64,000 nucleotides of DNA. Source: Phytophthora colocasiae. Taxonomy: Eukaryota > Oomycota > Peronosporomycetes > Peronosporales > Peronosporaceae. The stretch spans positions 124,001 to 188,000 of the forward strand of contig JAGKQI010000026.1 in NCBI GenBank assembly GCA_018806915.1, read 5' to 3'. Numbering within the stretch: the first letter of the stretch is position 1; each line of letters starts with the position of its first letter. A program made the position numbers and the translations under genes. This document shows positions 33,845 to 62,391 of this stretch, one piece after another. The notes beneath the pieces are model-generated. The model searched no databases and was not told where the DNA came from. It saw only the letters and a list, made by a program, of their open reading frames with translations.

Positions 33845-35542
33845 CTACAGAGGTTGGGATCTGGCAGCGTCGGGATCGAACCCCGGCAGCGAGCGGACAA
33901 ACTTCATGGAGAGTCGACTGGCACCGAAGCTGGGATGGGAAGATCCGGAACGATAGTGGGTACGCCAAGGATCCTGACGATCGCAGTCTTTAAGGGCAGC
34001 AATAAGGTTTTGCGGAGGATCCGCCCCAGCGGCGACAGCTTCAGCTCCCGGGTACCAGGTGGTATCTTCCAAAGGCAGTGGGAAGTGAATGAAGTGTGGG
34101 TCCAACCAGAGATCCAAGTCACAACACCCGGTTAAGCGCATCCTCTCAAATATCTTGGTCTGCAGCTTGCGATAATTATCCCGCGCGTGAGATCCACGAT
34201 TCTTCCTGCGGCGATAGAAGCCTGCGAACCAGCTATCCGCCTCGCGTAGCTCAGTGGAGATAGGGAATGAATGCGTGGATTCCCAAATCGCTTGGAGATT
34301 GGCAGACTCAAACACGTCATACCAACTCAAGATCTCCGCAAGTTGAGGCGACAGATCCTCCTGGAAGGTGAAAGGGGGCGGGGCTTGAGACTGGAGATCT
34401 TTCCACGGCTCCGTCGCGTACAGCTGAATAATATGGGCCTGGGAGATGAGCTCAGGGGCGTAACTACCCCGATCCAACGCACCACGGCCGATACGGAGCG
34501 GGAACAACCACCCAGGACGACGACAAGCGGTCAAACCACTGGCGGAAAGCGTTCGGAGACTCAGCTGGCTAACTTCGTTCGCGATCCAAGGGGCCACCTC
34601 TTCGGAAGCCATTGGGCGAGGATCTCGGGCGGCAGGAACAAACTCCTTCAGCGGACCAAAAGCTTCAAACTGCAGGTCTTCTATGTTTCCCCGAGAGCCC
34701 GTCTCAGGAGCTACTGGGGACGTAGGTGACGAACGGCTGGACCCGTTATCGGGCTGAACAGTAGAAGCATCGCCGATCTCGATGGGAGCGGACACTGATC
34801 CCTCCCCAGATGAACGCCGACGTAATTCTGACCGGGAGCGCGACTTGGCGACCCGTATCTGCTCGTCCTCGGATCCCTCCGACTCCCCATCTGAGCTGGC
34901 TTCTCGGTCGTCTTGTACGGCTGATCCGGGCGAATTCCCCTCGCCGGAATCTTGCGGCTTCTTGCGGGTTTTGATAGCGGGATCCTCGGAAACCACTGGA
35001 CCGGGAACCTTCGTTTTCTCAATTGAAGGAGGCTCTCCGGTTGACTGGCTCGTAGGTTCTCCGGGTTCGGACTCGGCGGAGTCTGGATCCTGCCCCGGAT
35101 ACTCATCCCTTGCGTCCCCGACGTCAAAATCCGGATGGTTCCCCGTGTCGCCTACCTCTGTGTGGACGGGAGCAGGCGCGGGTTGGGACGCGGCAGTGGG
35201 GGACTTCACAGGGCTAGTGTAGCGCGGGACCTTGGGCGGGGGTTCTTCTGTTGAAGAAGAAACGTCGCTGTGCCGACGTTTGGAAGAAGAAGACTCTTTG
35301 GCAGTAGACGTCTCCGACTGTACGGTCGGCGCATTCGACGAGCTGCGCATCGCCATAGAGACAATCGACGCCAGATTGCGAAGAGCTGCGGTACGCTCGT
35401 CAATAACGCTACGGTGCTCTTCCTCCAGGGCAGTATGCTCCTGTCTGAGTGCGTCATGCTTCGTCTTGAGGTCTTGATGACTTCCGCGGAGACGCCTAAG
35501 ATGTTCTTGGTCGACCGATGCTTGCGCCAACGACGCCGTCAA
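33845..35542 (-). CDS. Antisense protein of family A, C-terminal part
   Basis: 565-codon frame opposite to pol; its first codon is TTG, and coding continues upstream in the same frame (ARQVFAGKDQIIRD, VEIQRLKGEYEQL) into the region of the 478-codon frame. Order: short coiled coil; long acidic Ser/Pro/Glu-rich stretch (about residues 70-290) with basic clusters (SSKRRHS); compact C-terminal domain of about 250 residues that parallels family B: FESANLQAIWESTHSFPIS, DLWLDPHFIHFP, WYPGAEA, LIAALKDCDRQDPWRTHY. Function unknown. Conservation of residues while the DNA has diverged indicates coding. Together with 35560-36996 it probably forms one protein, split by one indel. Confidence 0.68.
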   Translation of the reverse strand: MTASLAQASVDQEHLRRLRGSHQDLKTKHDALRQEHTALEEEHRSVIDERTAALRNLASIVSMAMRSSSNAPTVQSETSTAKESSSSKRRHSDVSSSTEEPPPKVPRYTSPVKSPTAASQPAPAPVHTEVGDTGNHPDFDVGDARDEYPGQDPDSAESEPGEPTSQSTGEPPSIEKTKVPGPVVSEDPAIKTRKKPQDSGEGNSPGSAVQDDREASSDGESEGSEDEQIRVAKSRSRSELRRRSSGEGSVSAPIEIGDASTVQPDNGSSRSSPTSPVAPETGSRGNIEDLQFEAFGPLKEFVPAARDPRPMASEEVAPWIANEVSQLSLRTLSASGLTACRRPGWLFPLRIGRGALDRGSYAPELISQAHIIQLYATEPWKDLQSQAPPPFTFQEDLSPQLAEILSWYDVFESANLQAIWESTHSFPISTELREADSWFAGFYRRRKNRGSHARDNYRKLQTKIFERMRLTGCCDLDLWLDPHFIHFPLPLEDTTWYPGAEAVAAGADPPQNLIAALKDCDRQDPWRTHYRSGSSHPSFGASRLSMKFVRSLPGFDPDAARSQPL

Positions 35543-35559: not shown

Positions 35560-36996
35560 TCAGGCGTTGGATTTCGACCCCTTGATCCCGAATGATCTGG
35601 TCCTTCCCGGCGAAGACTTGTCTCGCTTGGTGGAGACCTTCTGTGTGGCCTTGTCCAGAGCTTGGGTCGCCTGATCTCGCACACGAAAAGCTTGATCTCG
35701 CTCGTCGGACACGCGATCCAATTCCTTGGAGACCGCGGCGGACTTCCGCGCAGGCTCGTCACGCTCGAGGCGGATCCGATCGAGATCCGCACTCATCTTC
35801 CTCTGCTCCGACGTCTGGCTCCGGATCCTGTCAAGTTCGCGCTTGACCCTCTCTCTGGCTTGATCCGCACGATCCCGTCGGTCATTCGCTTCCAGCAGAT
35901 CCTCCTCAGCTCTTTTGAGACGTTTTTCAGCGGTCAGACGCTTGAGCGCGTTGTTCTCAGCCCGTCTCTGCTGACGTTCCATCTCTTCCCGGGCGTTGAG
36001 GTTCTCCGTTTCGAAGCGCACAAGGTCCTCTTGGGCTCGGTCAAGCTTCTGAAGGGTATGTGCATATACCCGGTGAAGATCTTCACGTCTACGCTCTGAC
36101 TTGGCGAGAAGCCCTTCCAACTCAGTGATCCTCTCCTTCCGGACATGAAGTTCCAGCTTGAGCGTTTCGACAGTCTTGGCGAGGTTCGGCTGGGAGAGAT
36201 GCTTCAGCGATTCGCGCAACCGATCCCGGTGGGCCCGGAGGTCTTCGATCTTATGCGCCTGTTGATCGCAACGGATAGTGGACTCTGCGAGCTGGACGCT
36301 GGTGCGATTGCGTTCGAGCTCAGCCGCATCTCGTGCGGCCTCCACCGCCCGCAACCGAGTTTCCAGATCGGTCGCACGCTCCAATAGCTCCGAGGACTCT
36401 TCGCGCTGATCCTCGAGATCTTGGACCAATCGGACTACCGAAGGATTCTCCACTGAGACATCTTCCCCAGCAATCTGCTGCTCGAGCCCCACCGTATAAT
36501 CTTGCAAAACGGCGTAGGCTTCTGCCGAAGATACCTCCAGATCGGAATACCGGACCTTGAGAGTGTCCAATTCGCGCAAGCGATCCTTGAGCCGATCCAG
36601 ATCCTGCACCGCTTCCGCTTCTTTTTGTTTCGCTAACCGAAGAGCAGCTTGGGATACATCGTACCGGCGCTGCGTGAAATCAATGAAGGCTTGGGCAACG
36701 CTCAGGCGGGGTTGCAGCATGTTGTGGAGTTCTTCATTATGCCGGCGCACTGCGGTCAGATCATGGAGCACTTGTTGGTAGCTGTCCTGCATCTCGTTAT
36801 ACCCAGCAGCGAGAGACTGGAGCGAGGCAATGGTATCATACACTGGATCCAGATCTGGAACCGTGGGGGTCGTAGCCGCAGCGGGGTCGGAAGGGGCTTG
36901 GTCACAATGAGGGCAAGGGGGCTGGGCCGCAGAACGATCTTGGCCGAAGAACACCGTGGTGCACGCGGAAGAACTGGCGTCGGCGGACCGATCCAT
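35560..36996 (-). CDS. Antisense coiled-coil protein of family A, N-terminal part
   Basis: 478 codons from ATG 36996, 103 bases inside the 3' LTR, reading toward pol. A short N-terminus with CPHCDQAP is followed by an almost continuous coiled coil (residues about 50-450) rich in Glu, Arg, Leu and Gln (LRRLKD-like heptads; VKRELDRIRSQTSEQRK, DRVSDERDQAFRVRDQA). Family B exon 1 (50144-51028) is a shorter coiled coil in the same place with similar terminal phrases (RVTSERDRLFVERNQAFADRD). Database matches to generic coiled-coil proteins would not be informative. It ends 17 bases before the nominal start of the next frame; the two frames overlap by continued coiled-coil coding, so one base change likely separates them. 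Confidence 0.68.
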   Translation of the reverse strand: MDRSADASSSACTTVFFGQDRSAAQPPCPHCDQAPSDPAAATTPTVPDLDPVYDTIASLQSLAAGYNEMQDSYQQVLHDLTAVRRHNEELHNMLQPRLSVAQAFIDFTQRRYDVSQAALRLAKQKEAEAVQDLDRLKDRLRELDTLKVRYSDLEVSSAEAYAVLQDYTVGLEQQIAGEDVSVENPSVVRLVQDLEDQREESSELLERATDLETRLRAVEAARDAAELERNRTSVQLAESTIRCDQQAHKIEDLRAHRDRLRESLKHLSQPNLAKTVETLKLELHVRKERITELEGLLAKSERRREDLHRVYAHTLQKLDRAQEDLVRFETENLNAREEMERQQRRAENNALKRLTAEKRLKRAEEDLLEANDRRDRADQARERVKRELDRIRSQTSEQRKMSADLDRIRLERDEPARKSAAVSKELDRVSDERDQAFRVRDQATQALDKATQKVSTKRDKSSPGRTRSFGIKGSKSNA

Positions 36997-43856: not shown

Positions 43857-46390
43857 TCAAGGAGTTCCAGGAGATGTAGGCGGAGCAGGCGGATTAAACT
43901 TGTTTTCGAGCCGTGGGATCTGCCGAGACGGGTGGTCTGCCGGTCGGTCGCGATAATGATTGCGCCAATGGTCCTCTTGATCACATTCAGCCAACGCAGA
44001 GATCAGATCGGTGGGCTCCGGTCGGTTCAGAGTCGGCTGGGCCAGGTTGGCCATTCGGAGACCGATCCGGGATACCAGTGTACCTGATCACGGATAGTGG
44101 GGAAGTGCAGGAAGTAGGGATCGAGCAGAAGATCGATGTCCGCCCACATCGCACGCATCATGGGCAGGAATCGCCCCAGCAGCCGCCGCCAACGCTCTCC
44201 GGTGCGGCTACGCCGTTGCCGACGTTCGAGGTAGTACCGATGAAGATCAGGATCGGCTTCATACATTGTCTTCGTGATCTCGAGATAATGGGTCGATTCC
44301 CAGTAGGCCTGCAGGTGGTCTGACTCGTAGGCGGCGTAGGCATCCGCGATCTGCCCCAGCGGAGTTCCAGCACGACGATGTAGACCGAGATCGAAGGTGA
44401 GGTGGGGCCGGCCGGTTGCGAAGCACCTCCCAAGGTCGGGTAGCGAGCAGGGCCCGCACGTTGGACCCAGTGATCAGGTTGGCCAACCAACCGACCCCAG
44501 CTCGGGGAGGTCGGTTAGCCGGAGATCTCGCTGGGTAGAGGAATCCGGGAGGTAGCAGCAACCTCTTGTCCAGTGTGGAGAGGATCATACCGACGATCGC
44601 CAAAGTTCCGACAAAGATCGGATCCCACGGGAAGACATCACCAGCCGCGAACTGCCGGACGTTCGCATACCCGGAAATGGACGAGTGGATTGCGAACAGA
44701 GGAGGGTGCAGCTGGGGGCGCGGCGAGCCGCCGGGAGAGCCGCCACCCGGAGATCCCCCACCGGGAGGGCTCCCGCCAGCTGGACTACCCCTCGGGGACC
44801 CCTGAGGAGAGGTGATCGTGGTCTGTGGGGAGCCGCCCCCCGGAGGTGTCGGCTGCGCCGGAGGCGTCTGAGGAGCGGGGCCCCCTTGATCACCGGATGC
44901 CGGAGGAGGATTTCCATGCCGGCGGTGCCACGACAGCGATCGGAGTATCATAGTCCGAAGAGCGTCGTCGGATCCAGCGCCAGAATCCTCTTCGTCATCG
45001 TCATGCTCCGGATCGGGTTTGCGTTTGGACCGATTCGAGCCATCCTTCTTCGGGGGAGGTGCTTCTACGGTCACTTGCGAGGTGGCCTGGGTGCGATCTG
45101 TTTCCTCCGCATCCGGCCCAGTCGGGATCGCGGGTTCAGGACCCAGATCGAAGGGGTCTGGGCCTTCCTCGTGCTTTTCTTCGAGCTCGGTCGCCTGGGC
45201 CTGGCCACCGGGTTGGTCTCCAGCGGGAACATCAGGTGGGGCCGCGTCGTGATCGGTCGGGGGAGGCTCCGTCCGCGAGGTCTTGTGCGGGGGCGATGTA
45301 GCAGGAGATGGGGGCGGACTGAGAGCACGTTTGACCCCCCGTTCATCTTGAGCGGCGCGGAGCCGAGAAACCATTTCGGTCAGGACGTTGGTGGTCGCCC
45401 ATACGTTATCTTCCGCCTGATCGTAGCTCTCCTGCAATGTTTGAAAACTGCACTTCGGCATGGGTACCGATCAGATCGTCCTCTACGACAAACAGGACAT
45501 AAGTGATCGTGGTCAGGTGGAGAGGGATCTAGACTATATACGTACCTAGGCGAGTGGATCGCTGTCGCTCGGTGCTGAGATCCGTCTGTGCCCTGTCGCG
45601 ATCTGCGAACGCTTGGTTTCGTTCCACGAATAGGCGATCCCGCTCCGAAGTGACTCGGTTCAGTTCGGAGTTAGCGTGGGCGAGTTGATCGAGGATCTGG
45701 TCGCGTTCGGCAACAATGTTGGTCAGGGAAGAGGTCGCTCGGGCGAAGTCCGCCAAGGCTCGATCTCGCTCAGCCAGAGCCAGTCGGGTGGGAGCCCCGG
45801 TCGAAGGCGTGGGGCTAGAATCCAGTTGGAGATGCGCAAGATCAGCCGAGATCCGGTTGTAGCTGGCTTTGGCGGTGACGGATTCCTGCTTCGCCTCGGC
45901 TAGATTACAAGCATCAATCCGAGCTTCCGCCTGCAGATCTTGGATCTCATCGGTGGCTTGTTCTACCTCACCTGTCAGGCGATCCCGATCCTCGGTGACT
46001 TGATCGAGCTCAGCCTGAGCGGAGTCGAGACGCCGCTCGAACCGACCGGAGCTGGTGAACTTGCGAGCGCAATCCATCGAGATCGGAGGCCTCATCTGCG
46101 AGATCAGCGATCTCGCGCTCCAGACGCGAGACGTTCTGCTGGTCCGCCCGGAACCGCTCCATGGCTTCACGACTTAGCTGATCGCGTTCGCGTACCAGGC
46201 GATCCCGCCCTGGGCTGCCCGGCATCGGCCCAGCCTCATCGGATGAGAGCGGGCGCGCGTGATCCGGAGCCAGACCGGATGGACGCCGCGAGGTACCGGA
46301 GTAGGGAGATGACGGACCGTCGGAGGATCTTGGGGAATCGGGAGGTGTAGGCAAATAATCGCTCCCGGGATCACTTCCTTGCTGACTCAT
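43857..46390 (-). pseudogene. Antisense gene of family B, copy 3, frameshifted
   Basis: Exon 1 runs from ATG 46390 to 45546, then the 63-base intron, and exon 2 from 45482 to 43857. Exon 1 is a coiled coil (LDQLAHANSELNRVTSERD) after a Ser/Pro-rich N-terminus (SQQGSDPGSDYLPTPPDSP). It has lost bases near 46150, including the residues WAHVDAMER. Exon 2 has a 14-base loss near 45452 and shifts near 44340 and 44040. The conserved C-terminal motifs (WESTHYLEI, CDQEDHWRNHYRDRP) remain. Its splice sites are still good. Confidence 0.7.
45483..45545 (-). other. Intron of antisense gene, B copy 3
   Basis: 63 bases. 5' site GTACGT, branch-like CACCTGAC, 3' site TTTGTCGTAG. Joining the flanks continues the coiled-coil frame (codon GAG across the junction). 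Read through, the frame stops at TAG inside the intron. Confidence 0.7.
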
Positions 46391-48636: not shown

Positions 48637-50017
48637 TGTGGTGGAGCGGATCTGGCCAAAATCTGGTTGAGGCCGATCGCGATCGCCACTTGCGCCCAGA
48701 CACCGACTAACGGAGGGGGTCCCCCGATGATCCGTGATCTTGTTGCGTGTAGTGTTCACCTTGTGTACCCGTCGGTAGGCGGGTTACGCTCTTCCAGGTA
48801 ACTTCTGAAGATGTCTTGGGACGAGAAGAATGTCTTGGGTGACGCAGGGGTGATGAGATAGCGTGGGAATACTTCACTCTACCTCGGAGGGGTTGATCCG
48901 GGTCACAGGCGAATACTCGAGTCTTGATCCGGTCGCCTGATCTTCGATCTAGGTCTTCCAAAGGTCCAATGTTGGGAATCTGGTACCTTCCTTTACGATG
49001 CTTGCCGCTTCCTATAGCGGGTGTCTTGATGGGTTGAGAGTCGACGAGATCGTCCAGCCAAGCAGCCATTTCCTTCCGATCCGTAGTTCGCACGTAAAGG
49101 ATAGATCACTAGATAGGGTAAAACTGGCCAATGTATTATCCAGAATTAACCTCTATGCTAGATCTCTTCTCCTTACCTTCTTGATGCTGGTGGGCCAATG
49201 TAATTCCCGGTTCCAGTCTTGGATGAAGGCACTTGTGAGGTCCAGAGCAAATTCGATTCTGTTTATGGTTATTCCTATGTCTACTAGTCCCATCCTCATC
49301 TGCTATCCTACGATTACCTGACATCCGGCTACACAGCTGCCCCTCCGATCTTCGATCTCGATCTCACCTAACCCCTGATCGCGATCTCGGTCTGCCGATC
49401 TGGCGATCAGCCGATCTGTCGATCTGTCGATCTGGCGATCAGCCGATCAGCCGATCTGGCGATCAGCCGATCTCGATCAACCATCTCGGTCATCGATCTT
49501 GGTCCACCGTCTTGAACAATGATCTCGATCAGCAGCCTTCATACTTGATCTCGCGTGCCTGTGTCGTCGACATTTCAGGTCTTGAGCTTTGCGGACTTGA
49601 TCACCACTCCCCATGCGACTAACACTGCCATCAGGTCCCCTCGGCAACATCTCACGGTTATGTTGTCACCGGCCCACCATAGATCGCACCGGTCCCGACC
49701 CTCTGCTGCCTTGATCGCCTTCTCATGCGATCTCAGGCAAGGCGCCCTTTTCTCCTCCGACCCTGAGCCGCCACGCGGGACCGCACGGCGGGTTCTCCAA
49801 TCACTTAGTCTCACTCGACCAAGACGCCATCCATCATTCCCCTGCCCGCTGGCAAGATCAAGACGAACATCGATCTGGATCCATTCGTCAGCCATCGTTC
49901 GCGCAATCTGGGGTCATCAACTGACATCTTGCTTCGCCAGAGGCCCCTGTCGCTTGATCCGACTCTCTCTGGGCCTGACATTGCCTTTCTTGGATTTCTT
50001 ATTCGTGCTTCACCACA
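48637..50017 (-). repeat. Family B LTR, 3' LTR of copy 2
   Basis: 1381 bases. Mosaic: the 180 bases nearest the internal region (49840-50017) are the 3' subtype shared with copy 3 (CATTCCCCTGCCCGC, TTCTTGGATT), while the rest resembles the 5' subtype. A GATC array lies at 49390-49470. Confidence 0.9.
49390..49470. repeat. GATC array in family B LTR (copy 2, 3' LTR)
   Basis: GATC at mostly 8-base spacing with spacers TGGC, AGCC, TGTC. Confidence 0.85.
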
Positions 50018-50143
50018 TCCGCCCCCAGCCTGCAAGTTGGTCCGTCTCGGTCCACTTCAGGTCTCATTCTCCAATCTTCAGCCCAAGGCACAAGTCACCC
50101 CGACAACACCTCGACCACCATCAACGGATCCCTTCCAGTCTCC
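50018..50143 (+). other. Leader between 3' LTR and antisense start (B copy 2)
   Basis: 126 bases, no gene. It begins TCCGCCCCCAGCC, the complement of the probable polypurine tract. Presumed 5' untranslated part of the antisense transcript. Confidence 0.5.
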
Positions 50144-52731
50144 ATGAGCCAGCAAGGAAGTGATCCCGGGAGCGATTATTTGCCTACACCTCCCGATTCC
50201 CCAAGATCCCCCGACGGTCCGCCATCTCCCCATTCCGACATCTCGCGACGTTCGTCGGGTCCGGCTCCAGACCACGCACGCCCGCTCTCATCCGATGAGG
50301 CTGGGCCGATGCCGGGCAGTCCAGGGCGGGATCGCCTGGTGCGCGAACGTGATCAACTAAGTCGTGAAGCCATGGAACTTTGGGCGCATGTCGACGCCAT
50401 GGAGCGGTTCCGGGCAGACCAGCAGGGCGAGATTGCGCGTCTGGAGCGCGAGATCGCTGATCTCGCGGAGGAAGCCTCTGATCTCGATGGATTGCGTATG
50501 CAGGTTCACCAGCTCCGATCGGAACGCGACGAGTTCGCGCGGCGTCTCAACTCTGCCCAGGCAGACCTAGATCGAGCTACAGAGGACCGGAATCGTTTGA
50601 CTGAAGAGGTGGAACAAGCCACCAACGAGATCCAGGATCTCCAGGCGGAAGCCCGGATCCATGCTTGCGATCTGGCTGAGGCGAAGCAAGACTCCGTCAC
50701 TGCCAAGGCCAGCTACAACCGGATCTCGGCTGATCTTGCACATCTCCAACTGGATTCCAGCCCCACGCCTTCGACAGGGGCTCCCACCCGATTGGCCCTG
50801 GCTGAGCGAGATCGTGCCTTGGCGGACTCCGCCGAGCGATCGCTTCCCTGACCAGTATCGCTGGTGAACGTGACCTAGCCACCGATCAACTCGCCCACGC
50901 TAACTCCGAACTGAACCGAGTCACTTCGGAGCGGGATCGCCTACTCGTAGAACGAGACCAAGCGTTCGCAGATCGCGACAGAGCACAGGCGGATCTCAGC
51001 ACCGAGCGACAGCGATCCACTCGTCTAGGTGCGCATATAGTCTAGATCCCCCTCCACCTGACCATGATCACTCATATTCTGTTTGTCGTAGAGGACGATC
51101 TGATCGGTACCCATGCCGAAGTGCAGGAGTTAGAAGCGAGTCTTCAAGCACTGCAGGAGAACTACGATCAAGCGGAAGATAACATATCGGCGACTACCAA
51201 CGTCCTGACCGAAATGGTGTCTCGGCTCCGCGCTGCTCAAGATGAACGGGGGGTCAAACGTGCTCTCAGTCCGCCCCCATCTCCTGCTACATCGCCCCCG
51301 CACAAGACCTCGCGGACGGAGCCTCCCCCGACCGATCACGACGCGGCCCCACCTGATGTTCCCGCTGGAGACCAACCCGGTGGCCAGGCCCAGGCGACCG
51401 AGCTCGAAGAAAAGCACGAGGAAGGCCCAGACCCCTTCGATCTGGGTCCTGAACCCGCGATCCCGACTGGGCCGGATGCGGAGGAAGCAGATCGCACCCA
51501 GGCCACCTCGCAAGTGACCGTGGAAGCACCTTCCCCGAAGAAGGGTGGCTCGGATCGGTCCAAACGTAAACCCGATCCAGAGCATGACGATGACGCGGAG
51601 GATTCTGGCGCTGGATCCGACGACGCTCTTCGGACTATGATACTCCGATCGCTGTCGTGGCACCGCCGGCATGGAAATCCTCCTCCGGCATCCGGTGATC
51701 AAGGGGGGCCTGCTCCATCGACGCCTCCGGCGCAGCCGACACCTCCGGGGGGCGGCTCCCCACAGACTCCGATCACTTCTCCTCAGGGGTCCCCGAGGGG
51801 TAGTCCAGCTGGCGGGAGCCCTCCCGGTGGGGGATCTCCGGGTGGCGGCTCTCCCGGCGGCTCGCCGCGCCCCCAGCTGCACCCTCCTCTGTTCGCGATC
51901 AGCTCGTCTATTCCCGGGTATGCGAACGTCCGGCAGTTTGCGGCTGGTGATGTCTTCCCGTGGGATCCGATGTTCGTCGGAACTTTGGCGATCGTCGGTA
52001 TGATCCTCTCCACATTGTCCAAGAGGCTGCTGCTACCTCCCGGATTCCTCTACCCCGCGAGATCACCGGCTAATCGCCCTTCCCGAGCTGGGGTCGGTTG
52101 GTTGGTTAGCCTGATCACTGGGCCCAACGTGCAGGCCCTACTTGCTACCCGACCTTGGGAGGTGCTCCGCAACCGACCGGCCCCCCTCACCTTCGATCTC
52201 GGTCTACATCGTCGTGCTGGGACTCTGCTGGGGCAGATCGCGGATGCCTACGCCGCCTTCGAGTCAGATCACCTGCAGGCCTACTGGGAATCGACCCATT
52301 ATCTCGAGATCACGAAGGCGATGTATGAAGCTGATCCTGATCTCCGTCGGTATTACCTCGAGCGTCGGCAACGGCGTAGCCGTACCGGAGAACGTTGGCG
52401 GCTGCTGTTGGGACGATTCCTGCCCATGATGCGGGCGATGTGGGCGGACATCGATCTTCTGCTCGATCCCTACTTCCTGCACTTCCCTACTATCCGTGAT
52501 CGGGTATACTGGTACCCCGGATCGGCCTCCCGAATGGCTAACCTGGCCCAGCCGACTCTGAACCGACCGGAGCCCACCGATCTGATCTCTGCGTTGGCAG
52601 AATGCGATCAGGAGGACCTTTGGCGCAACCATTACCGCGATCGGCCGGCAGATCACCCGTCCCAGCAGATCCCACGGCTCGAAAACAAGTTTAACCCGCC
52701 TGCCCCACCTACACCTCCTGGGACTCCCTGA
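50144..52731 (+). CDS. Antisense gene of family B (copy 2), two exons
   Basis: Reads inward from the 3' LTR, opposite to pol. Exon 1 50144-51028, intron 51029-51091, exon 2 51092-52731, predicted about 841 residues. Exon 1: Ser/Pro-rich N-terminus (YLPTPPDSPRSPDGPPSP), then a long coiled coil from about residue 65 (RDRLVRERDQLSREA, LERLEREIADL-type heptads). One base is lost near 50838 relative to copy 3, and 885 bases plus one gives exactly the phase the splice needs. Exon 2: more coiled coil, acidic stretch with basic cluster (KKGGSDRSKRKPDPEHDDD), Gly/Ser/Pro repeats, then the C-terminal domain with WESTHYLEITKAMYEADP, DLLLDPYFLHFP, YWYPGSAS and CDQEDLWRNHYRDRP. Homologous domain in family A (33845-35542). 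Biochemical role unknown; a regulatory or Gag-like structural role are both open. Confidence 0.72.
51029..51091 (+). other. Intron of antisense gene, B copy 2
   Basis: 63 bases: 5' site GTGCGC, branch-like CACCTGAC (about 51053-51060), 3' site TTTGTCGTAG. Unspliced reading stops at TAG 51042-51044. Exon 2 is open from its first base. Copy 3 has the same intron, same length, with a stronger GTACGT donor. Confidence 0.72.
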
Positions 52732-53103: not shown

Positions 53104-56100
53104 CTACACCTCTTCGTGCGACTGCATCACGCCAAACCGATTTCGGTTAGCATGATCACGTAGGAACGCGCTCAGTATGGCTCCACAGTTAAGATCAGCT
53201 TCGTCGACCCAAGTTGGTTCATCATAACCGACCCAGTGCACCAGGAATTCACGATAGATCCGGCCGTAGCGAGTCCGTTTCCCACTTCGCATGTCCGAGA
53301 TCCGTTCGACCTCGTACTCGTCGGCATCCAGATCTGGGACCCAACTGTCCTCCGGAAGGAGGATCTCATCGAAATCTAGCCGATCTGCTTCATCCACAGT
53401 CAACTCGACCCGCGGTCGATCCGGAAAATTCCGCACCAGCTTTAGCTTAGAAACATGAACCACCGGGAAGATATGGTAATCAGATCCCGCGATCTCCAGC
53501 TTAATCGTGAATTCGTTGAGCTTCTCTGCAACACGGAACGGGCCGTGCCAAAGGTGAGCGAGTTTACGTGCATACCCTTCCTTCACACGATCTAGGTATA
53601 GCCAAACTCGTGATCCAGCTTCGATCTGATGCGGATCGACATCCTCATTATGCCGATCGGCTCGATCTGCAATCGCCTCTCGTAGTCTAGCGTTGACCTG
53701 TTCTCGCGACTGCTGGTAGTATCTCTGAACCCGATATCTCCACCGTCTTGGATCGCGATCGTGGCGTCTGGTCGATCCGATCGGGATCGTTGCCTCCAAC
53801 GTCGATCTCGGATCCCATCCATGTACCAGGTAATGAGGGGTATCTCCCGAACCCGATCGTGAGCCGTGTTAATGGCGAAAGTCAATCTCTCCGCGTATTC
53901 ATCCCAGTCCTTTTGATCGAGATCTTGAACATACATCTTGATCGCCCTAGTCGCCGTTTGCACCATCCGTTCCGCAGTCCCGTTGGCTTGCGGCCGGTAG
54001 GCCATCGTCGCCCGTTGTCGCTGCCCCAGGATCCTAGTGAACGATCTGAAGAAGTCGGACATGAAACCCGGTTCTCGATCGTGCCTGATCATCTCGCTAG
54101 CACCAAATCTGCGGAACACGCATTCTTCATAAGATTCCGCGACGGTCTGGGCCGATCGGGAGGAACTGGCCTTTGCGATCACATATCCCGTGAACAGATC
54201 GACCCAGATCAGTAGTTCGGTGTTGCCTTTGTTGGATCTGGGCAGAGAAGGTATGTGATCCATCGCTATGATCTGGAATGGGTATGTCGCCTGCAGATTC
54301 CCCGGCGACTCGCCCCGGATCGTGGGTCTCCCCTTCCCGGTCTCACAATCTACACACTCGCCTACGTATCGCTGCACGCTCCGATATAATCCCCTCCAGT
54401 GGAAATGATCTCGGATCCGCTGATAAGTGCGTCCGATCCCCTGATGTCCTCCTTCCAGAGTCGTATGATAGTGGTGGAGGACATCCTGCTGTAGCGTTTC
54501 TGGAACTACAAGTCTCATCAGGCGATCGCGATCACCACTTGATCTCGGCCCTGGTGGGCAGTAAAACAGCAGATCTTGTTCATCTACCTCATACTCGGAG
54601 GCGATCTTGGCGTAGGATCCGGATTCGGCTCGAGTAAGATCCGCGATCTGCCCAGCCAGGTACTTCTTTAGTCCTGCGATCCAGACCTCCTCGTCCTGGG
54701 CTCGCCTGATCCGATCAACCCGCATCTCCCGGATCAGTTCCTCTCGCAAGACAGCGGCGCCAGGTCGCGCTCGGGCTGCACGCGTGGCTACTGCCGACAC
54801 TTGCACAGATTGATCTTCAACTCGAGGGATCAACACCTCATTAAGCCGATTCAGGGTGATCAGATCGCATCGATCTGCCTCATCGTGGACTTCGATCCCG
54901 CCTCCTCGCTGCAGCGCGGCACTCGCCAAGCTATCTGCGCTCCCATTCCAGTCTCTCTTCACATGGACCAGCTCATGATCCCCCCAATTCCGCAAGTGAT
55001 CTAGCACCTTCTGCTTCAGTAACGTCAATCCTGGCGCCTTGCAGTCGATCTCGCCCCGGACTTGTCGGATCACCAGATTCGAATCGCCACAAACAACCAA
55101 ACGGCGGCGTTCTAACTGTGCGATCATGCCAAGACCTAGCAAGAGTCCACGGTATTCCGCTTCATTGACAGTAAGGCTTTCAGCATAATCCGATCTAGCC
55201 TTGATCACTTTCCACTCTGGCAAACTCCACACGATCGCGCTGAAAGCGCCCCCTCCTCGTTTCACGCGTGCCGATCCGTCGAAACTTATAACCCACAGCT
55301 CCTCATCTGGGTCTACGGTGGGGATCGGCATCTGGATCCGACGTTTTGGTTCCTTTCGAGGCGCGATCGCGATCAGGGCTTCATCGATCTCCGATCTGGG
55401 CGTTATGTTAGCTGCGATCGCCCCCAGTATTTCGTCCTCTCCCTTCGTACACTTCGTGATCTCGAGTGTCCACGGGGACAGAAGAGCAGACCATTGTCCC
55501 AGACGTCCTTGGAGGCCGGCAGACTTGAACAGCCAGGCAAGCGTGGAGTGTCTGGTTAGGACCTTGATCCGACGTCCCACCAACAAGGTGTAGTGTAGAT
55601 CCAAGATTCGAAGTAGAGCCAACACCTCCTTTTCGGCAACATTATAATTCAGCTCGTTGGTCTTCAAGGTTCGGCTGGCAAACGCGACTGGGTGGTAGAT
55701 CTGGTCGTGTTCCTGCATTAGTGCGGCGGAAATCGCCCAATCACTAGCGTACACGATCACCACGGGTAACCTCGTCGTGTCGAAGTGACGAAGGATCGGG
55801 GTCGACGCGATCTTGGTCTTCAAGGCTGTAAACGCCCTGTATGCCCTACCCCACCTCTCGTCACCAGTCTTTAGGCCCAGGTTGGCTCCGATCTCGCTTG
55901 AACAGGGTGAAGACATCGCCCCCAAGTCAGGATCTGGTGTACTATCGCGTCTTTGAGTCGGGATATCTAGTGATCTATCCCGATCCGACTTAAGCGCGAC
56001 GGGATCTTGAGTGATCAGGTCCATGCTATCCATGATCTTTCGCAGATCTGGTCGCTTCTTCAGTTCTGCGAACTCCACCTCACGTAGTTCATATAGGACC

Positions 56101-58688
56101 GATGCATAGATCGCATAATCCTCGATGAACCGACTATAGTAATTCAAACTTCCAAGGAACGATTGCATAGATCGGAGTGATCCGGGGAATGGTAGATCCG
56201 TCAGAGACTTCAGGTCTTTCGGGTTTGCTTCCAATCCATCGATCGACACTTTGTGTCCGAGATATTCCACCTTATCCATGCCCCAGAAGCTCTTTGCCAC
56301 ACTGATCGAGAGATTCCACTTATCACAGGCCTCCAATAGGTCTTCCACCCGATCGCACATTTGATCCCATGATCCAGCCGTGATCAGGATATCGTCGATG
56401 TATGATCTCCGTCCTAGCACCGACGGGCGACCGGGATCTTCCGGGATTCCTGACTCGAACACATCCGCAGCGCCTTCCACATCTCCGGACTGGGAGATCT
56501 TCAAAAATCCATATAGGGCATTGTCCACAAGGCGTTGATAGATCTGAGGGGCGTTCTTCAGCCCGAACGGCATGCGATTCCACTCGAAAAGGCCAAATGG
56601 AGTGATGAAAGCCGAGATCGCGCGAGCTCGATCGGTCATTGATACGACCCAGAATCCACTCGCCATGTCTAATGAACAATACCAAAGAACCTTGTCAAGA
56701 TCTTCTAGCAGGTCATTGATCAGGGGCATCGGGTAGATCATCAGCCTTGTGAGACCGTTCACCAACCGATAATCGATACATAGTCGGATGTCTACACCGT
56801 TCTTCTTGATGATCACCACGATCGGAGATGCCCATGGCGATGTCGATGGCCGAATGATCTTGGCAGCTAGGAGTCCTTTGATAAGATCTGATACTTTCTC
56901 GCGAAACTGTGGCGCCACCTTTCGGACTCGTTGTGCGATCGGCTTTGCATCACCCACGTCGATATCGCATATAACACCCTTGGCCGCTGGAGGAAGTGCG
57001 TTTCCCTTTCCGATCAGGAGATGTCGCTTCTTCCAAATAATCTGTCGAAGTTTCTCGATCTCCTCCGGGTAGCCGATCCCGGATTCCCTACTTGCAGATC
57101 TTCAATCCTGACTTCTTCGGTGGTGGAGATCTGGATCTCTGGTACTACTGCGAGATTATCGGCTAGATCTTCGGCCGAAAAATCGCCACTTTCGTGTAAG
57201 TGGGTCTGATCAGCGTTCTCGATCCCTTCAGGAGATGTCGGATCCGGTTCATCCGTTGATTGATCACGCAGCCTATCGTCCTTGGCTGTCAAGATCAGTG
57301 TCTTTAACCATGGGGACGGCATCGGCGTCGGATTCATGTTTGATCTCGATTTGAAAATCTGGTTTTTCTGTTTTTACCTCGATCTCTTCTTCGCATGTCC
57401 GATCTGTCCGATCTAGGGCCTGATCTGGCAAGCTCTCATTCGTCTCAGTCTTACCGCCCCCAGCTTCGCCACTCGGGGTCTTGTCGGAACTGATCGTAAT
57501 CGGTGGGGTATCCATGGGATCCGGTTGGGGATCGATGAATGCGACCTTGACTTCGGCTGTATCGGTTGGTGATCGCGGTTCCAGTGTCGATATTGGTGCA
57601 GGATCAGGGTCGGTCCTGGTTGCCCCACCTCGGCGGAGTATGGATCGCGGCGTAACGTAGGTCGGCCGTTCGACCGACGGTAAGGGATCTCCACGGATTC
57701 CTGAGGTTCTGGTCTTGCGTCCACAGTCGCTTCTAGAGCTAGATTCTGCCACTCCATGTAACGTCGGGATCCGATCGACACAAACCCGGGGAATCGAGGC
57801 ACTTTTTCCTGATCAAGTACCATTCCAACATGTAATCTGTGATCCAGTCGTAAAATCTTCTCGCTCAAATTCGTGATCACTAAGTACCGAGTTCGGCCGG
57901 GTCCATTCACCACTGTAGGTACCCATTGGTCGCCTCTGGTCACCCACAATTTCTCTGTCGCCGATAATCTCACTCTCGATGCGATCTCTTCAGATCCCCC
58001 AACTGGGATATGTAGATCTTCCTCCACTTTTACCGATCTCACCTTCTCCCCGTATAATCTCTTGCGACCACTAAGTGGGATCCCCACTTCATTAGGTAAG
58101 CACATCGATCCCTTTGCAAGATCCATCCGGACCCCAGCCGGGATCATGAAATCCATACCCAGGATCGCATCTTGCCCGGATAGATCCCCGATCCAAATAT
58201 CGAAAAGTAGACCAGGTATCCCGCAAGCGTGATCTTGATCCTCGTTCCCTCGGTGGTGTACACATTATCACCGATCCCAACACACTCCTGTCTCTGACTA
58301 GTGTCAAAGTGGCACCCAACCTTACGAGCAAAGGTGGTATCCAAGATGGATACCTCGGCGCCAGTGTCCAGGAGCAAGATCGCTCTTTCGTGATTGATCT
58401 TGCCTGAGATCTTGGCTTGGCGGAACCATTTTCCGGGTGCGTGGTATTTCCAATACCCCCTGGACTCTCCTTCCTTGAGATCCAGAGCCACTTCCGCACC
58501 AGATCGAGAGAACTCATCGATCCGGGGAAGACTCGCGATCTTAGCAGTATACGAATGCAACTTACATGTATTACCGCGCAGATCCGAATTCTCCCTATCT
58601 TGATCTCTCGATTTCTTGTTCACATATGCATAGATGCAGTACTCAGAACGCTCGGCTCGTACCGGTTTCCAAACCGGCGAGCGTCCTA
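53104..58688 (-). pseudogene. pol: Protease-pol of B copy 2, several small indels
   Basis: Same order as copy 1: protease (LLDTGAEVS near 58355), linker, RT (YIDDILI), resident RNase H with TRH, second RNase H, integrase, chromodomain. The -1 frame from the slip site is open (TGG in the hairpin, AAA after VNK), unlike copies 1 and 3. Losses relative to copy 1: one base near 58203 and three near 58246 (protease), one near 57684, two near 57295 and one near 57068 (linker), one near 53845 (integrase tail). The largest open stretch is 56957-53592, RT to integrase. Most losses fall in runs of G or A, so consensus errors in the assembly are possible. Confidence 0.88.
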
Positions 58689-58695
58689 GTTTAAC
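58647..58695 (-). promoter_or_regulatory. -1 frameshift site and hairpin (B copy 2)
   Basis: GTTAAAC (58695-58689), TAG, then the hairpin ACGCTCG-CCGGTTTGGAAACCGG-TACGAGC-CGAGCGT. Here the -1 frame is open: GTT AAA CTA GGA CGC and onward into protease, giving a continuous Gag-Pro-Pol entry. Confidence 0.82.
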
Positions 58696-61013
58696 ATCTT
58701 TTCCACCTTCTCGGGGAACAATCCGGCATGTCGGGTCGGGTCGTACCACTTGCGGATCTGGTTGTAGAATTCTTCCATGGGGCATTCTCCAGCTTCATGG
58801 ATCTCCCCACAACCATGGCAGGTATACAGACAGCGATCCGTTGGGTGACCCCTCTTCCCGCACTTATCACAGGTTAGACGTCTCCAGCAGTCTAGATCCG
58901 TGTGCTTCCGCGATCCGCAGTGCAAACAGCGACCTCGATCGCGATCTGATCCCCCGCGATCCGTGATCCGGCCTCGATCTTGCGCGTTCACCTGCGATCG
59001 CGACTGATCCTGTTGGTGGGGAACGCCCCCAGTACCGATCTGCTTTTCTTCCGACGCGGCAAGATATATCCTTCGGAGATCGCCTTCAGAATCGGATCCG
59101 TCCGATCCGGATATTTCTTCTGATTCCGAGCTCGTATCTTGGGTTTGGATCGCCCGTACCACCGCTCGGGTGGGTGCCGCCGGGGCACTGGCCGGTGCCT
59201 TTTGTCTGTACTTCGATCCGAACGCAGATTTACGCTGCTCGCTTTTCGCCCGTTCCCGGGCACGAAGTACCTCCTCCAGTTCATCGACGTCGCTCAGTCG
59301 GAGTAGGGTCAGCCGATCAGCTAACTCCGGATCTCCCAATGTCTCGATGTAGTGGTCTACATGTTCCCGGCGGGCCTTAGGGCTCCCATCCTTGATTTTC
59401 AGTCTAGCACGTAAAGCCGCTACGTTGAGCCGGTAGAGATAGTCAAGGCGAGTCTCTTCTGATCGCTTGCGAGCGTGATAGTATTGCCACGCGACCGACA
59501 TACCCAACCCACAATACTGGGTCTGGAAACTGTTCAGCAGATCCGCCCACTTGGTTTTCGTCGTTCGACTGAGCTGCCTGTACCAGTTCTTTGCCGGTCC
59601 CACCATCAGATCTGCAAACGTGAGGCATTTTTCTTCTTCTGTAGCCTGATCACGCTGGAACGCTGACTTGACCTTACCGATCCAGGCCCGAGCGCGATCT
59701 TCGTCCAGATCTTTACCCGCAAAGTCTTTTAGATCCGAAATCGCTGAGATCCGGACCCGCTGGATCATCGACGATCCTCCTTGACCGATCGTTGCGGATA
59801 CGATCGCTGCTCGGCTCGACATCTGTCCACCGGAACTCGGTATGCCCAGATCGTCCGGATCGTATTCCCATGCATCGGGATCTGATGCGGTAACGGACTC
59901 CATATCAACATCCAACTCCCCTTTGATCGGCGATCGGGGTGTCACGAGACTCCGTTCTTTTAGGAAACGATCCATCGCCATCTGGAAGTAGTCGTCCAAC
60001 TTGTTGCTCGATCCAGTGGAATTAGTTGTCGGCGCGGTCTGGTCTGTCCGGATCCGGCGATTTTCCTGCTGATCAGGCGTCTTAGCCCCCAGTTTCGCAA
60101 CCACCGATCGTGTATCTTGTTTCTTCATACGCGATTTCAGGAATTTGGCACCGGAGGGGCCTAACGACATGCGTTGCAGCCTTCTTGGGCTGTCGGAATC
60201 TGGTTCCGAGGTCGCTGACGCGTAGCATGACGATCCAGTCTGATAGCCCGGATCGGGCGTCAGTGGGCGTTCGCCGACCAAGACTTTGAGAGAGTTGAAT
60301 AGGTCATGGGTTGCAGACTGAATCGCTTCCAGTTCCAGGTCAAATAGAGAGTTTGGGTCGAATTCTCCAGCCACTAAACCAGCCTCTTGGAGCAGATCAA
60401 GTAGAATCTTCACCGCGTTCAGGCGGTCCGAGCTAGTCCGGGGTTTCGACACTGGGCCGGTGAGGTTACCGATCTGGCGGACTTGTATGATCGTAAGAAC
60501 GGGATCGTTAAGCAAGGTTTCGCTTAGCATCTTCCTGTAATAGGCCTGCTCGATCGCGTCCTTGGTAATCGTCGATCCCGGGCTGATCATATCTTCTGGC
60601 TCTGAGTCTGGAGCTTTCAATTTCGTCCGGGTGCTCTTGATCTTCTTTTTCTTGGTCGATCTTGAGGCAACAGTGGACTTGGTGAGCAGATTAGGTTTCA
60701 GCTTTGCTGATTCCTTATCGCTCGTGTGCGGATCTCGATTCTCATCGAGATCCGCAATGGCCCTCGAAGGGGCCTTGGGAGGAATTCGAGGTTTTTCTTC
60801 AAGATCTGGATTGCGATCCAGGTCTGCCTCGTGCCTGTCAGTAGAGATCCTCCCAGAACTCTGCTGATCTGTGGATCTTTCCGTTTTCAGTGGTGCCTCC
60901 GCCGATCCAACATTCGTAGGCACTTCTTCCCCTTGTTCTTCCTTAATCTTGACATCTTCTTGGGACTCACGGTGATATCCGAAGTCACCAGAAGATCCGG
61001 GCACGCGCACCAT
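58686..61013 (-). CDS. gag: Gag, intact (B copy 2)
   Basis: 775 codons without interruption. Start ATG 61013, chosen because it abuts the LTR and begins the MVRVPGS stretch shared by both families; an upstream in-frame ATG lies within the LTR and is not shared with family A. Domains in order: acidic N-terminus (about 1-60); Lys/Arg-rich block near 135-150; conserved helical block (EQAYYRKMLSETLLNDP); capsid domain about 430-600 (SMIQRVRISAISDLKDF, GPAKNWYRQLSRTTK, YCGLGMSVAWQYYHARKR); basic stretch (ARERAKSEQRKSAFGSK); three zinc knuckles at about 690-740 (CLHCGSRKHTDLDC, CDKCGKRGHPTDRC, CHGCGEIHEAGEC); tail KMLN at the slip site. It would assemble particles and package element RNA. The best Gag of the window. 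Confidence 0.9.
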   Translation of the reverse strand: MVRVPGSSGDFGYHRESQEDVKIKEEQGEEVPTNVGSAEAPLKTERSTDQQSSGRISTDRHEADLDRNPDLEEKPRIPPKAPSRAIADLDENRDPHTSDKESAKLKPNLLTKSTVASRSTKKKKIKSTRTKLKAPDSEPEDMISPGSTITKDAIEQAYYRKMLSETLLNDPVLTIIQVRQIGNLTGPVSKPRTSSDRLNAVKILLDLLQEAGLVAGEFDPNSLFDLELEAIQSATHDLFNSLKVLVGERPLTPDPGYQTGSSCYASATSEPDSDSPRRLQRMSLGPSGAKFLKSRMKKQDTRSVVAKLGAKTPDQQENRRIRTDQTAPTTNSTGSSNKLDDYFQMAMDRFLKERSLVTPRSPIKGELDVDMESVTASDPDAWEYDPDDLGIPSSGGQMSSRAAIVSATIGQGGSSMIQRVRISAISDLKDFAGKDLDEDRARAWIGKVKSAFQRDQATEEEKCLTFADLMVGPAKNWYRQLSRTTKTKWADLLNSFQTQYCGLGMSVAWQYYHARKRSEETRLDYLYRLNVAALRARLKIKDGSPKARREHVDHYIETLGDPELADRLTLLRLSDVDELEEVLRARERAKSEQRKSAFGSKYRQKAPASAPAAPTRAVVRAIQTQDTSSESEEISGSDGSDSEGDLRRIYLAASEEKQIGTGGVPHQQDQSRSQVNAQDRGRITDRGGSDRDRGRCLHCGSRKHTDLDCWRRLTCDKCGKRGHPTDRCLYTCHGCGEIHEAGECPMEEFYNQIRKWYDPTRHAGLFPEKVEKMLN
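60994..61012 (-). other. Primer-binding site inside gag start (B copy 2)
   Basis: TGGTGCGCGTGCCCGGATC, identical to the other A and B sites, one base inside the LTR boundary. Confidence 0.75.
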
Positions 61014-62391
61014 TGTGGTGGAGCGGATCTGGCCAAAATCTGGTTGAGGCCGATCGCGATCGCCACTTGCGCCCAGACACCGACTAACGGAGGGGGTCCC
61101 CCGATGATCCGTGATCTTGTTGCGTGTAGTGTTCACCTTGTGTACCCGTCGGTAGGCGGGTTACGCTCTTCCAGGTAACTTCTGAAGATGTCTTGGGACG
61201 AGAAGAATGTCTTGGGTGACGTAGGGGGTGTGAGATAGCGTGGGAATACTTCACTCTACCTCGGAGGGGTTGATCCGGGTCACAGGCGAATACTCGAGCC
61301 TTAATCCGGTCGCCTGATCTTCGATCTAGGTCTTCCAAAGGTCCAATGTTGGGAATCTGGTACCTTCCTTTACGATGCTTGCCGCTTCCTATAGCGGGTG
61401 TCTTGATGGGTTGAGAGTCGACGAGATCGTCAGGCCAAGCAGCCAATTCCTTCCGATCCGTAGTTCGCACGTAAAGGATAGATCACTAGATAGGTAAAAC
61501 TGGCCAATGTATTATCCAGAATTAACCTCTATGCTAGATCTCTTCTCCTTACCTTCTTGATGCTGGTAGGCCAATGTAATTCCGGTTCCAGTCTTGGATG
61601 AAGGCACTTGTGATGTCCAGAGCAAATTCGATTCTGTTTATGGTTATTCCTATGTCTACTAGTCCCATCCTCATCTGCTATCCTACGATTACCTGACATC
61701 CGGCTACACAGCTGCCCTTCCGATCTTCGATCTTGATCTCACCTAATCCCTGATCGCGATCTCGATCTGGCGATCAGCCGATCTGGCGATCAGGGATCTG
61801 GCGATCAGCCGATCTGGCGATCTGGCGATCAGCCGATCAGCGATCAGCCGATCTCGATCAACCATCTCGGTCATCGATCTTGGTCCACCGTCTTGAACAA
61901 TGATCTCGATCAGCAGCCTTCATACTTGATCTCGCGTGCCTGTGCGTCGTCGACATTTCAGGTCTTGAGCTTCCCGGACTTGATCACCACTCCCCATGCG
62001 ACTAACACTGCCATCAGGTCCCTCGGCAAGCATCTCACGGTTATGTTGTCACCGGCCCACCATAGATCGCACCGGTCCCGACCCTCTGCTGCCTTGATCG
62101 CCTTCATGCGACCTCAGGCAAGGTGCCCTTTTCTCCTCCGACCCTGAGCCGCCACGCGGGACCGCACGGCGGGTTCTCCAATCACTTAGTCTCACTCGAC
62201 CAAGACGCCATCCATTCGTCGCTGGCGAGATCCAGACGAACATCGATCTGGATCCATTCGTCAGCCATCGTTCGCGCAATCTGGGGTCATCAACTGACAT
62301 CTTGCTTCGCCAGAGGCCCCTGTCGCTTGATCCGACTCTCTTAGGGCCTGACGTTGCCTTTTCTCGGATTTCTTATTCGCGCTTCACCACA
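61014..62391 (-). repeat. Family B LTR, 5' LTR of copy 2
   Basis: 1378 bases, 5' subtype. It carries CTCTTAGGG where the other LTRs have CTCTCTGGG, a change shared only with the LTR at 63115, which suggests that these two are sister copies. A GATC array lies at 61760-61860. Several small losses (for example near 61494 and 62015). Confidence 0.9.

What the first reader, a model, noticed from the sequence alone, without database searches (positions are those of the whole stretch)
50144..52731. Convergent antisense gene at the 3' end of a GATC-rich Gypsy family
Seen: every B copy, and family A, has a long frame on the strand opposite to pol, reading inward from the 3' LTR and ending just before the pol stop. 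The product is a coiled coil followed by an acidic/Pro-rich linker and a compact C-terminal domain I cannot assign. Known: Ty3/Gypsy elements normally end with pol; antisense 3' genes are rare exceptions (some plant Tat elements, HBZ of deltaretroviruses). Inference: an accessory protein made from a promoter in the 3' LTR.
Basis: partly seen in the sequence, partly recalled or inferred. Interest (0 to 1): 0.9.

Follow-up and report, generated by a model that had tools for sequence, protein, structure and literature searches.

The report
Antisense gene in oomycete retrotransposons
Mobile elements in this oomycete-like genome carry, at their tail end and on the opposite strand, a conserved extra gene that seems to be exchanged between elements together with their promoter region, which hints that the elements encode a regulator of themselves.

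Summary
At 50144-52731 (+) an apparently two-exon gene converges on the pol of a 13.8-kb Ty3/Gypsy element with dual RNase H and a chromodomain, the layout of oomycete "Chronos" elements. The window copy's first exon is frameshifted; other copies are open. The gene is real: dN/dS is 0.17-0.30 in exon-scale stretches of two element families. Protein hits with a named source are all Phytophthora or Nothophytophthora. Of 150 pol ends at least 97% identical to this one, 120 have a listed antisense gene within 2.5 kb; all 120 are convergent, 46 of type B and 74 of type C. B and C share R-U5, gag and pol (pol dS about 0.2) but differ in antisense gene (C-terminal domain dS 1.9) and U3, as template switching would leave them: the two seem to move as one cassette. 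Product: coiled coil, basic and acidic linker, C-terminal domain of about 270 residues without Pfam or PDB relatives. Most likely a nuclear regulator of its own U3 (inferred). Antisense pol-3'LTR genes are known in plants; my searches found no oomycete one in print. Structure prediction never ran; no RNA data were available.

The parts
48637..50017 (-). 3' LTR of B element copy 2 (TGTGG...CCACA); U3 about 50017-49340, R-U5 about 49339-48637 (the split is inferred from where B and C stop aligning)
   Evidence: 95.7% to 61014-62391; split
50018..50036 (-). purine-rich stretch next to the LTR, putative polypurine tract
   Evidence: read directly from sequence
50064..50079 (+). initiator/FPR-like oomycete core promoter site upstream of the antisense ATG
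   Evidence: YCAYTYY exact, FPR with one mismatch; INR intact in 18 of 20 B copies; motifs from PMC3599244 passages
50144..51030 (+). antisense gene exon 1 (Ser/Pro-rich N-terminus, coiled coil); open in the window copy only to 50851 because of a frameshift; intact in other copies
   Evidence: dN/dS 0.17 over 50144-50830 in 13 of 20 copies
51031..51090 (+). 60-nt segment read as an intron: GT..AG with an in-frame TAG
   Evidence: GT in 19 of 20, AG in 20 of 20, TAG in 20 of 20 copies; families C and A' have one unbroken frame
51091..52731 (+). antisense gene exon 2: end of coiled coil, basic patch, acidic/Pro/Gly linker, C-terminal domain
   Evidence: dN/dS 0.26 over 51094-52728; 0.30 over 51094-52299 with loci chosen by exon 1
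51865..52728 (+). conserved C-terminal domain, no Pfam or PDB sequence relative found
   Evidence: dN/dS 0.18
53104..53799 (-). 3' end of pol: SH3-like and chromodomain
   Evidence: PF00385; PF24626 just below its cut-off
53592..56957 (-). pol: RT, Gypsy RNase H, second (RVT_3) RNase H, integrase
58144..58785 (-). aspartic protease region
   Evidence: PF13975 below its cut-off
58686..61136 (-). gag-like frame
   Evidence: weak PF03732, E 0.023
61014..62391 (-). 5' LTR of B copy 2
2350..3789 (+). B copy 1, partial antisense exon 2 (residues 77-555)
   Evidence: C92:126350-127789
44403..45455 (-). B copy 3, broken antisense exon 2 (residues 24-374)
   Evidence: C92:168403-169455
35560..36996 (-). 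family A antisense gene, N-terminal coiled-coil part (frame change to the next part in this copy)
33845..35542 (-). family A antisense gene, linker and C-terminal domain
   Evidence: dN/dS 0.26 over 12 copies
28688..32515 (+). family A pol
32512..33150 (+). family A chromodomain end of pol
33344..33729 (.). GATC-containing tandem array (21/42-nt unit) between family A pol end and antisense stop

Best explanation
This is a genuine protein-coding gene of a Chronos-like Ty3/Gypsy retrotransposon, transcribed towards pol from a start site just inside the 3' LTR (shown: frame, selection, conservation; inferred: transcription). In family B the transcript is probably spliced. The intron lies on the antisense strand, so the sense genomic RNA would not lose it and it can survive retrotransposition (inferred). 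The product is a coiled-coil protein, so probably self-associating, with a basic patch, an acidic linker and a conserved C-terminal domain. The most likely job is to enter the nucleus and regulate transcription or copy number of its own element through U3, much as HBZ does in deltaretroviruses (recalled). The reason is that antisense gene and U3 differ together between elements whose R-U5, gag and pol are nearly the same. My confidence by step: real gene 0.97, antisense transcription 0.9, B intron spliced 0.8, initiator site 0.55, cassette exchange with U3 0.85, regulator acting on its own U3 0.45.
For: Selection: dN/dS exon 2 0.264 (20 copies), exon 1 0.170 (13 of 20 copies; 7 dropped for indels or rearrangement), intergenic 0.53-0.78, pol end 0.064 (19 copies); exon 2 positions 51094-52299 in 24 of 30 loci chosen by exon 1 0.30, codon bootstrap 0.20-0.44; family A, 12 copies, 0.262, its C-domain 0.160. 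Orientation: 150 pol ends (of 1348 candidates) were compared with 88 B and 132 C places; 120 have one within 2.5 kb, 120 of 120 convergent, 104 of 120 at 350-430 bp. Families A' and C have one unbroken frame of 1037 and 948 codons from the ATG in the one copy of each read through. Intron: GT 19 of 20, AG 20 of 20. Cassette: B vs C chromodomain 99.1% aa, dS 0.22; RH-IN 98.2% aa, dS 0.20; antisense C-domain 52.4% aa, dS 1.87; R-U5 85.4% and gag 93.1% nt, U3 alignable over only 74 of 678 nt. A vs A': RT-IN dS 0.25, antisense C-domain dS 1.3. INR-like sites upstream of the ATG in 4 of 4 families at a background of 0.12 per 125 nt.
Against: No RNA or protein data. No DNA-binding family beyond generic coiled-coil matches in Pfam, NCBIfam or PDB sequences, some lists capped; the fold was never predicted. 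Nuclear entry is inferred only from basic motifs, found by pattern in 6 of 7 proteins. Antisense gene and U3 are 126 nt apart, so their joint exchange may be mere linkage. The A/A' boundary is mosaic rather than sharp. Alignment of exon 1 and exon 2 ends to family C leaves 15 or 57 C residues between them, depending on the alignment, so it does not prove the intron. Coiled-coil periodicity is absent in C. Selection is weaker than on pol, and the linker is loosely held (dN/dS 0.42).
Confidence: 0.5

Rival explanations
1. The protein is real but not a transcriptional regulator: it works in the particle, in transport, or as a tether (coiled coil for assembly, C-domain for partner binding).
For: Coiled-coil plus separate C-domain suits a scaffold; no DNA-binding family found.
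Against: Would not by itself explain synthesis on the antisense strand or inheritance with U3; basic patch after the coiled coil in 6 of 7 proteins scanned.
Confidence: 0.3
2. The antisense RNA, not the protein, matters: convergent transcription or dsRNA silences the element.
For: Convergent layout in 120 of 120; P. infestans small RNAs map to both strands of Gypsy elements (PMC3522703, passages).
Against: dN/dS well below 1 in many copies and long frames in several species; an RNA function does not need codons.
Confidence: 0.07
3. In B the 60-nt segment is not an intron: its single in-frame TAG is read through, or the two parts are two separate proteins.
For: Length is a multiple of three, with the same in-frame TAG in 20 of 20 copies; exon 2 has its own ATG (51064). 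Alignment to family C leaves 15 or 57 residues between the exon ends, so an extra stretch there is not excluded.
Against: GT in 19 of 20 and AG in 20 of 20 copies. Retention would put a hydrophobic stretch into the coiled coil, whereas family C reads coiled-coil-type residues there (sequence).
Confidence: 0.13
4. B and C antisense genes differ because the gene evolves fast in place, not because it was exchanged.
For: dN/dS is higher than for pol.
Against: Synonymous divergence also jumps, from 0.2 to 1.9, and U3 becomes unalignable while R-U5 stays at 85%.
Confidence: 0.05
5. A captured host gene carried passively.
For: Part of the product resembles generic host coiled-coil proteins.
Against: Found beside pol at a near-constant distance in 104 of 120 cases, in four families here and in several species; no host family matched the C-domain.
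Confidence: 0.03

Closest known systems
Chronos Ty3/Gypsy elements of oomycetes (PMC5348765: abstract, section 5 and passages seen)
   Same: Gypsy RT, Gypsy RNase H plus second RNase H, integrase, chromodomain at the pol 3' end; reported from Peronosporales and Pythiales
   Different: no antisense gene in what I saw; the word antisense does not occur in the main text; supplements not seen
Retand/Grande/RIRE2 antisense ORFs of plant elements (PMC11963269 and PMC7264820, passages)
   Same: antisense gene between pol and 3' LTR; tandem repeats in that stretch in about half of active Retand elements, as in family A here; a regulatory role proposed; Grande product nuclear
   Different: the Retand protein has a TRP28 domain (PF04195), not seen here; this one has another C-terminal domain, an apparent intron in one family, and exchange together with U3
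HBZ of HTLV-1 (recalled; mentioned in PMC11963269 and PMC7264820 passages)
   Same: antisense gene read from the 3' LTR side; nuclear regulator with a coiled coil; spliced (recalled)
   Different: much shorter bZIP protein (recalled); retrovirus with env; no sequence compared
Boty of Botrytis, antisense ORF (PMC7264820 passages)
   Same: antisense ORF between pol and 3' LTR outside plants
   Different: fungal; no sequence compared here

Membership tests
Chronos (oomycete Ty3/Gypsy) | Gypsy RT with Gypsy RNase H and a second, plant/archaeal-like RNase H | tested here: met
   PF00078, PF17917, PF13456 in order; active-site type and phylogeny of the second RNase H not tested
Chronos (oomycete Ty3/Gypsy) | chromodomain at the 3' end of pol after integrase | tested here: met
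   PF00385 in B and A
Chronos (oomycete Ty3/Gypsy) | RT groups with Chronos in phylogeny | not tested
   no Chronos RT sequence held
Chronos (oomycete Ty3/Gypsy) | host in Peronosporales or Pythiales | tested here: inconclusive
plant Retand-type antisense gene | antisense ORF between pol and 3' LTR | tested here: met
   120 of 120 pol ends with a listed antisense gene nearby are convergent; 30 of 150 had none listed
plant Retand-type antisense gene | TRP28 domain (PF04195) | tested here: not met
   no such hit in 7 full or long proteins at E 0.001, in both family A parts at E 0.01, or in B exon 2 at E 0.5; not among the 25 of 37 families shown for 24 members
HBZ-like antisense retroviral gene | basic leucine zipper | tested here: not met
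   no bZIP family in the 7 proteins or the two A parts; for B exon 1 only 25 of 56 weak families were shown, none of them bZIP
HBZ-like antisense retroviral gene | antisense transcript started at the 3' LTR, spliced | not testable with these tools
   no RNA data; the sequence has an INR-like site and an intron-like segment

The most novel reading that the evidence does not exclude
Antisense gene and U3 form a self-recognition cassette. Each antisense protein binds only the tandem-repeat array of its own U3 and limits its own family's transcription, giving a repressor-type immunity, and template switching swaps cassettes so that a recombinant escapes the resident regulator. The extraordinary GATC density of these elements (LTR, gag, pol and antisense gene alike) would mark element DNA for that protein or for adenine methylation, which Phytophthora enzymes can place on GATC in vitro (PMC6211444, passages).
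Probability: 0.17. Interest if true: 0.88.

Novelty: new variant of a known kind. Interest (0 to 1): 0.7.

Why it matters
Oomycete dual-RNase-H Gypsy elements would join plant elements and deltaretroviruses in carrying an antisense 3' gene: a further convergence on top of the RNase H and chromodomain gains already reported. Because nearly the same pol backbone carries either of two antisense-plus-U3 sets in one genome, the old question of what antisense retroelement genes do becomes testable, by matching each protein to its own or the other U3. It also means that a number of 'hypothetical proteins' in Phytophthora gene sets are probably element genes.

Tried and rejected
Sense-strand coding (env-like) in the same stretch: rejected; all three minus frames carry stops in 20 of 20 copies over exon 2 and 13 of 13 over exon 1. 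A single 50144-52731 frame: rejected. TRP28 kinship: no sequence hit. Known domain in the C-terminal part: none found (the NCBIfam hits are coiled-coil families such as SMC; the PDB search gave 6 hits at E 0.16-0.88, none significant). Fold: never obtained. Relatives outside Phytophthora/Nothophytophthora: none with a named source in three protein searches; P0047 has no source name. The first sight of L063 suggested a type C gene in the same direction as gag; a nested insertion explains it. A target-site duplication for B copy 2 was looked for and not found (GGTTC / AAGGC). Coiled-coil periodicity is significant in B exon 1 and A' but not in C (249 of 300 shuffles as high). Selection estimates come from loci ranked by similarity to the window's protein, which favours well-kept copies; the cross-check used loci ranked by the other exon, some of them the same copies. 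Rows dropped: 7 of 20 copies for exon 1 (two of the 13 kept also have small indels); 1 of 20 for the pol end; 6 of 30 loci, 11 of the 94 rows (second pieces of places already listed), while 5 places seen only were counted as B because B exon 1 lies beside them. The 30 of 150 pol ends without a listed antisense gene are not evidence of absence; the lists are lower bounds.

Full report
What is there. The window lies in an unnamed 92.5-Mb genome. Between LTRs at 61014-62391 and 48637-50017 (95.7% identical) lies a Ty3/Gypsy element read on the minus strand: gag-like frame, protease, RT, Gypsy RNase H, a second RVT_3-type RNase H, integrase and a chromodomain (gag and protease matches are below Pfam's cut-offs). 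Family A, read on the plus strand, has the same order from protease to chromodomain and a pol 72% identical. This order is that of Chronos elements (PMC5348765, abstract and section 5 read).

Gene structure. 126 nt separate the LTR edge from the ATG at 50144. The P. megakarya protein P0007 aligns with B from its own first residue. In the window copy exon 1 runs into a stop at 50851 after a frameshift; other genomic copies are open, and in one natural copy the frame has 300 codons up to the TAG inside the 60-nt segment, 295 of them before the GT. The segment, 51031-51090, starts with GT in 19 of 20 copies, ends with AG in 20 of 20 and holds an in-frame TAG in 20 of 20. Splicing would join the frames in phase and keep the coiled coil running. 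Family A' (L064) and family C (L063) have one unbroken frame from the ATG (1037 and 948 codons), so the segment looks like a B feature; but local alignment of exon 1 and exon 2 ends to the C protein leaves 15 or 57 C residues between them, so I cannot show residue by residue that C lacks it. What C has there is coiled-coil-type sequence, not the hydrophobic stretch that the B segment would encode. An antisense intron can persist in a retroelement because the sense genomic RNA does not present it as an intron (inference from the retrotransposition cycle).

Is it coding? Among 20 B copies the variable sites in exon 2 fall 53/42/100 on codon positions 1/2/3, and dN/dS is 0.264; the other forward frames give 1.06 and 1.59, the minus frames 0.81, 0.41 and 1.88. 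The 0.41 frame shares its third positions with the annotated one, and all three minus frames have stops in 20 of 20 copies. Exon 1 (50144-50830) gives 0.170 in the 13 copies kept; the C-terminal domain 0.176; the linker 0.423; the intergenic stretch 0.53-0.78; the pol end 0.064. The 20 loci were ranked by similarity to the window's exon-2 protein, which could favour low dN; with 30 loci ranked by exon 1, of which 24 cover the part used (51094-52299), exon 2 gives 0.30 (bootstrap 0.20-0.44). Twelve family A copies, also ranked by protein similarity, give 0.262, and 0.160 for their C-domain. Between A and A' the C-domain gives 0.092.

Product. N-terminal Ser/Pro-rich part, coiled coil (generic coiled-coil Pfam hits; hydrophobic period 3.5, reached by 0 and 1 of 300 shuffles in B exon 1 and A', but by 249 of 300 in C), a basic patch by pattern in 6 of 7 proteins, an acidic stretch, an RSRSxxRR-type motif in 4 of 7, a Pro/Gly linker and a C-terminal domain of about 270 residues with motifs such as QAxWESTH, RRSHAGxRW, CDLDLLLDPFF and WYPG. 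No Pfam, NCBIfam or PDB sequence relative of the C-domain was found (searches show capped lists). Three protein searches returned 34, 1 and 20 proteins, the last overlapping the first; those with a named source are Phytophthora (megakarya, sojae, fragariae, cinnamomi, rubi, nicotianae, ramorum, palmivora, citrophthora, fragariaefolia) and Nothophytophthora. Structure prediction was answered as busy on every one of 30 tries.

Arrangement in the genome. Exon 2 of B has 94 matches, the family A protein 85, some of them the more distant families, the C-domain of type C 132; all are lower bounds. I compared the 150 scored pol ends (of 1348 candidates; 97% or more identical to the window's B chromodomain region) with 88 B and 132 C places. 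120 of 150 have one within 2.5 kb; 120 of 120 are convergent; 46 are B and 74 are C; none has both; 104 of 120 lie at 350-430 bp. A first pass with shorter lists gave 71 of 150, all convergent. The 30 without a listed gene are not evidence of absence.

One backbone, two cassettes. Three fetched C copies with pol attached carry a chromodomain 98.7-99.1% identical to B's. B against C: chromodomain dS 0.22, RH-IN dS 0.20, antisense C-domain dS 1.87 and 52% identity. By nucleotide, R-U5 is 85.4% and gag 93.1% (L063), while U3 aligns over only 74 of 678 nt and the antisense gene only in short pieces; two B copies as control give 96.5% for U3 and 99.0% for R-U5. These C parts come from different copies: U3, R-U5 and gag from L063, whose LTR matches at 91% that beside the C antisense gene on C57 (L068), and pol from L065-L067. 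In a genomic RNA the order is R-U5-gag-pol-antisense-U3-R, so one template switch between pol and the antisense gene during reverse transcription gives this result, and the new U3 is then copied into both LTRs (retroviral replication, recalled). A and A' show a similar but mosaic pattern: pol pS 0.09-0.49, highest at the 3' end (a last short bin left out), antisense gene 0.49-0.63. In a small DNA tree of pol ends the three C copies lie next to one B copy and the A outgroup, so I make no claim on the number or direction of exchanges.

Promoter. Oomycete core promoters use INR (YCAYTYY) and FPR (MWTTTNC) (PMC3599244, passages). B has TCATTCT at 50064 followed by an FPR with one mismatch. A pattern relaxed after the fact to allow that mismatch occurs once in the window on both strands. 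INR matches lie within 125 nt upstream of the ATG in B, A, A' and C (for A' 106 nt were held); expected 0.12 per 125 nt; an exact FPR follows only in C. This is suggestive, not proof.

How it most likely works. Shown: a selected protein, a fixed convergent place, joint difference with U3 on a shared backbone. Inferred: transcription from the LTR-proximal site, nuclear entry, self-association, action on U3. Comparable plant antisense proteins are argued to be regulatory, and that of Grande is nuclear (PMC7264820 and PMC11963269, passages). The main weakness is that antisense gene and U3 are neighbours, so joint exchange may be linkage alone.

Novelty. [quoted passage not shown] In an open-access library, the listings of searches show no paper that by title or abstract start describes one in oomycetes, and the main text of the Chronos paper does not use the word antisense. 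Supplements, Repbase notes and closed journals were not searched. I rate it a new variant of a known kind.

GATC. These elements carry GATC at 4 to 12 times the base expectation in the stretches tested. With protein and codon usage held fixed, B pol has 104 against 56.9 (z 9.9), gag 69 against 39.7, A pol 92 against 52.7, antisense exon 2 36 against 24.2, exon 1 16 against 10.3 (z 2.9); two frames of an unrelated Gypsy in the window show no clear excess (z 1.1, 1.2), and among 16 palindromic 4-mers only GATC is clearly raised in B pol. Cause unknown.

Noticed in passing
48637-62391, 28688-38593, L063-L065: GATC is far in excess in all four element families, beyond codon usage and protein (z 8-10 in pol and gag, 3-5 in antisense gene), not in an unrelated Gypsy at 17597-20586. 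Phytophthora adenine methyltransferases act on GATC in vitro (in an assay that sees only GATC), and 6mA is enriched in LTR elements (PMC6211444 passages).
   Followed up: partly
49391-49473; 22319-22523 and 37254-37394; L068:1736-1895: LTR or LTR-near stretches of each family carry their own short tandem array, each containing GATC, with different units in A, B and C: candidate binding arrays.
   Followed up: partly
33344-33729: A tandem array sits between the pol end and the antisense stop of family A; about half of the active Retand elements are reported to have arrays in that stretch (PMC11963269 passages).
   Followed up: no
48632-48636 / 62392-62396: B copy 2 has no matching target-site duplication, so its LTRs may come from a rearranged or recombined insertion.
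   Followed up: no
1-2362: The promoter side of B copy 1 is replaced by sequence matching family A (22311-24497 inverted, 91%): nested insertion or recombination.
   Followed up: no
L063:3453-8001: A type C element (C U3, then R-U5 and gag much as in B) seems inserted right behind the antisense gene of another type C copy.
   Followed up: partly
P0041, P0049 (public proteins): Relatives of the antisense protein are named (P0041) or scored (P0049) as autophagy protein ATG16; probably a coiled-coil artefact that mislabels element genes as host genes.
   Followed up: no
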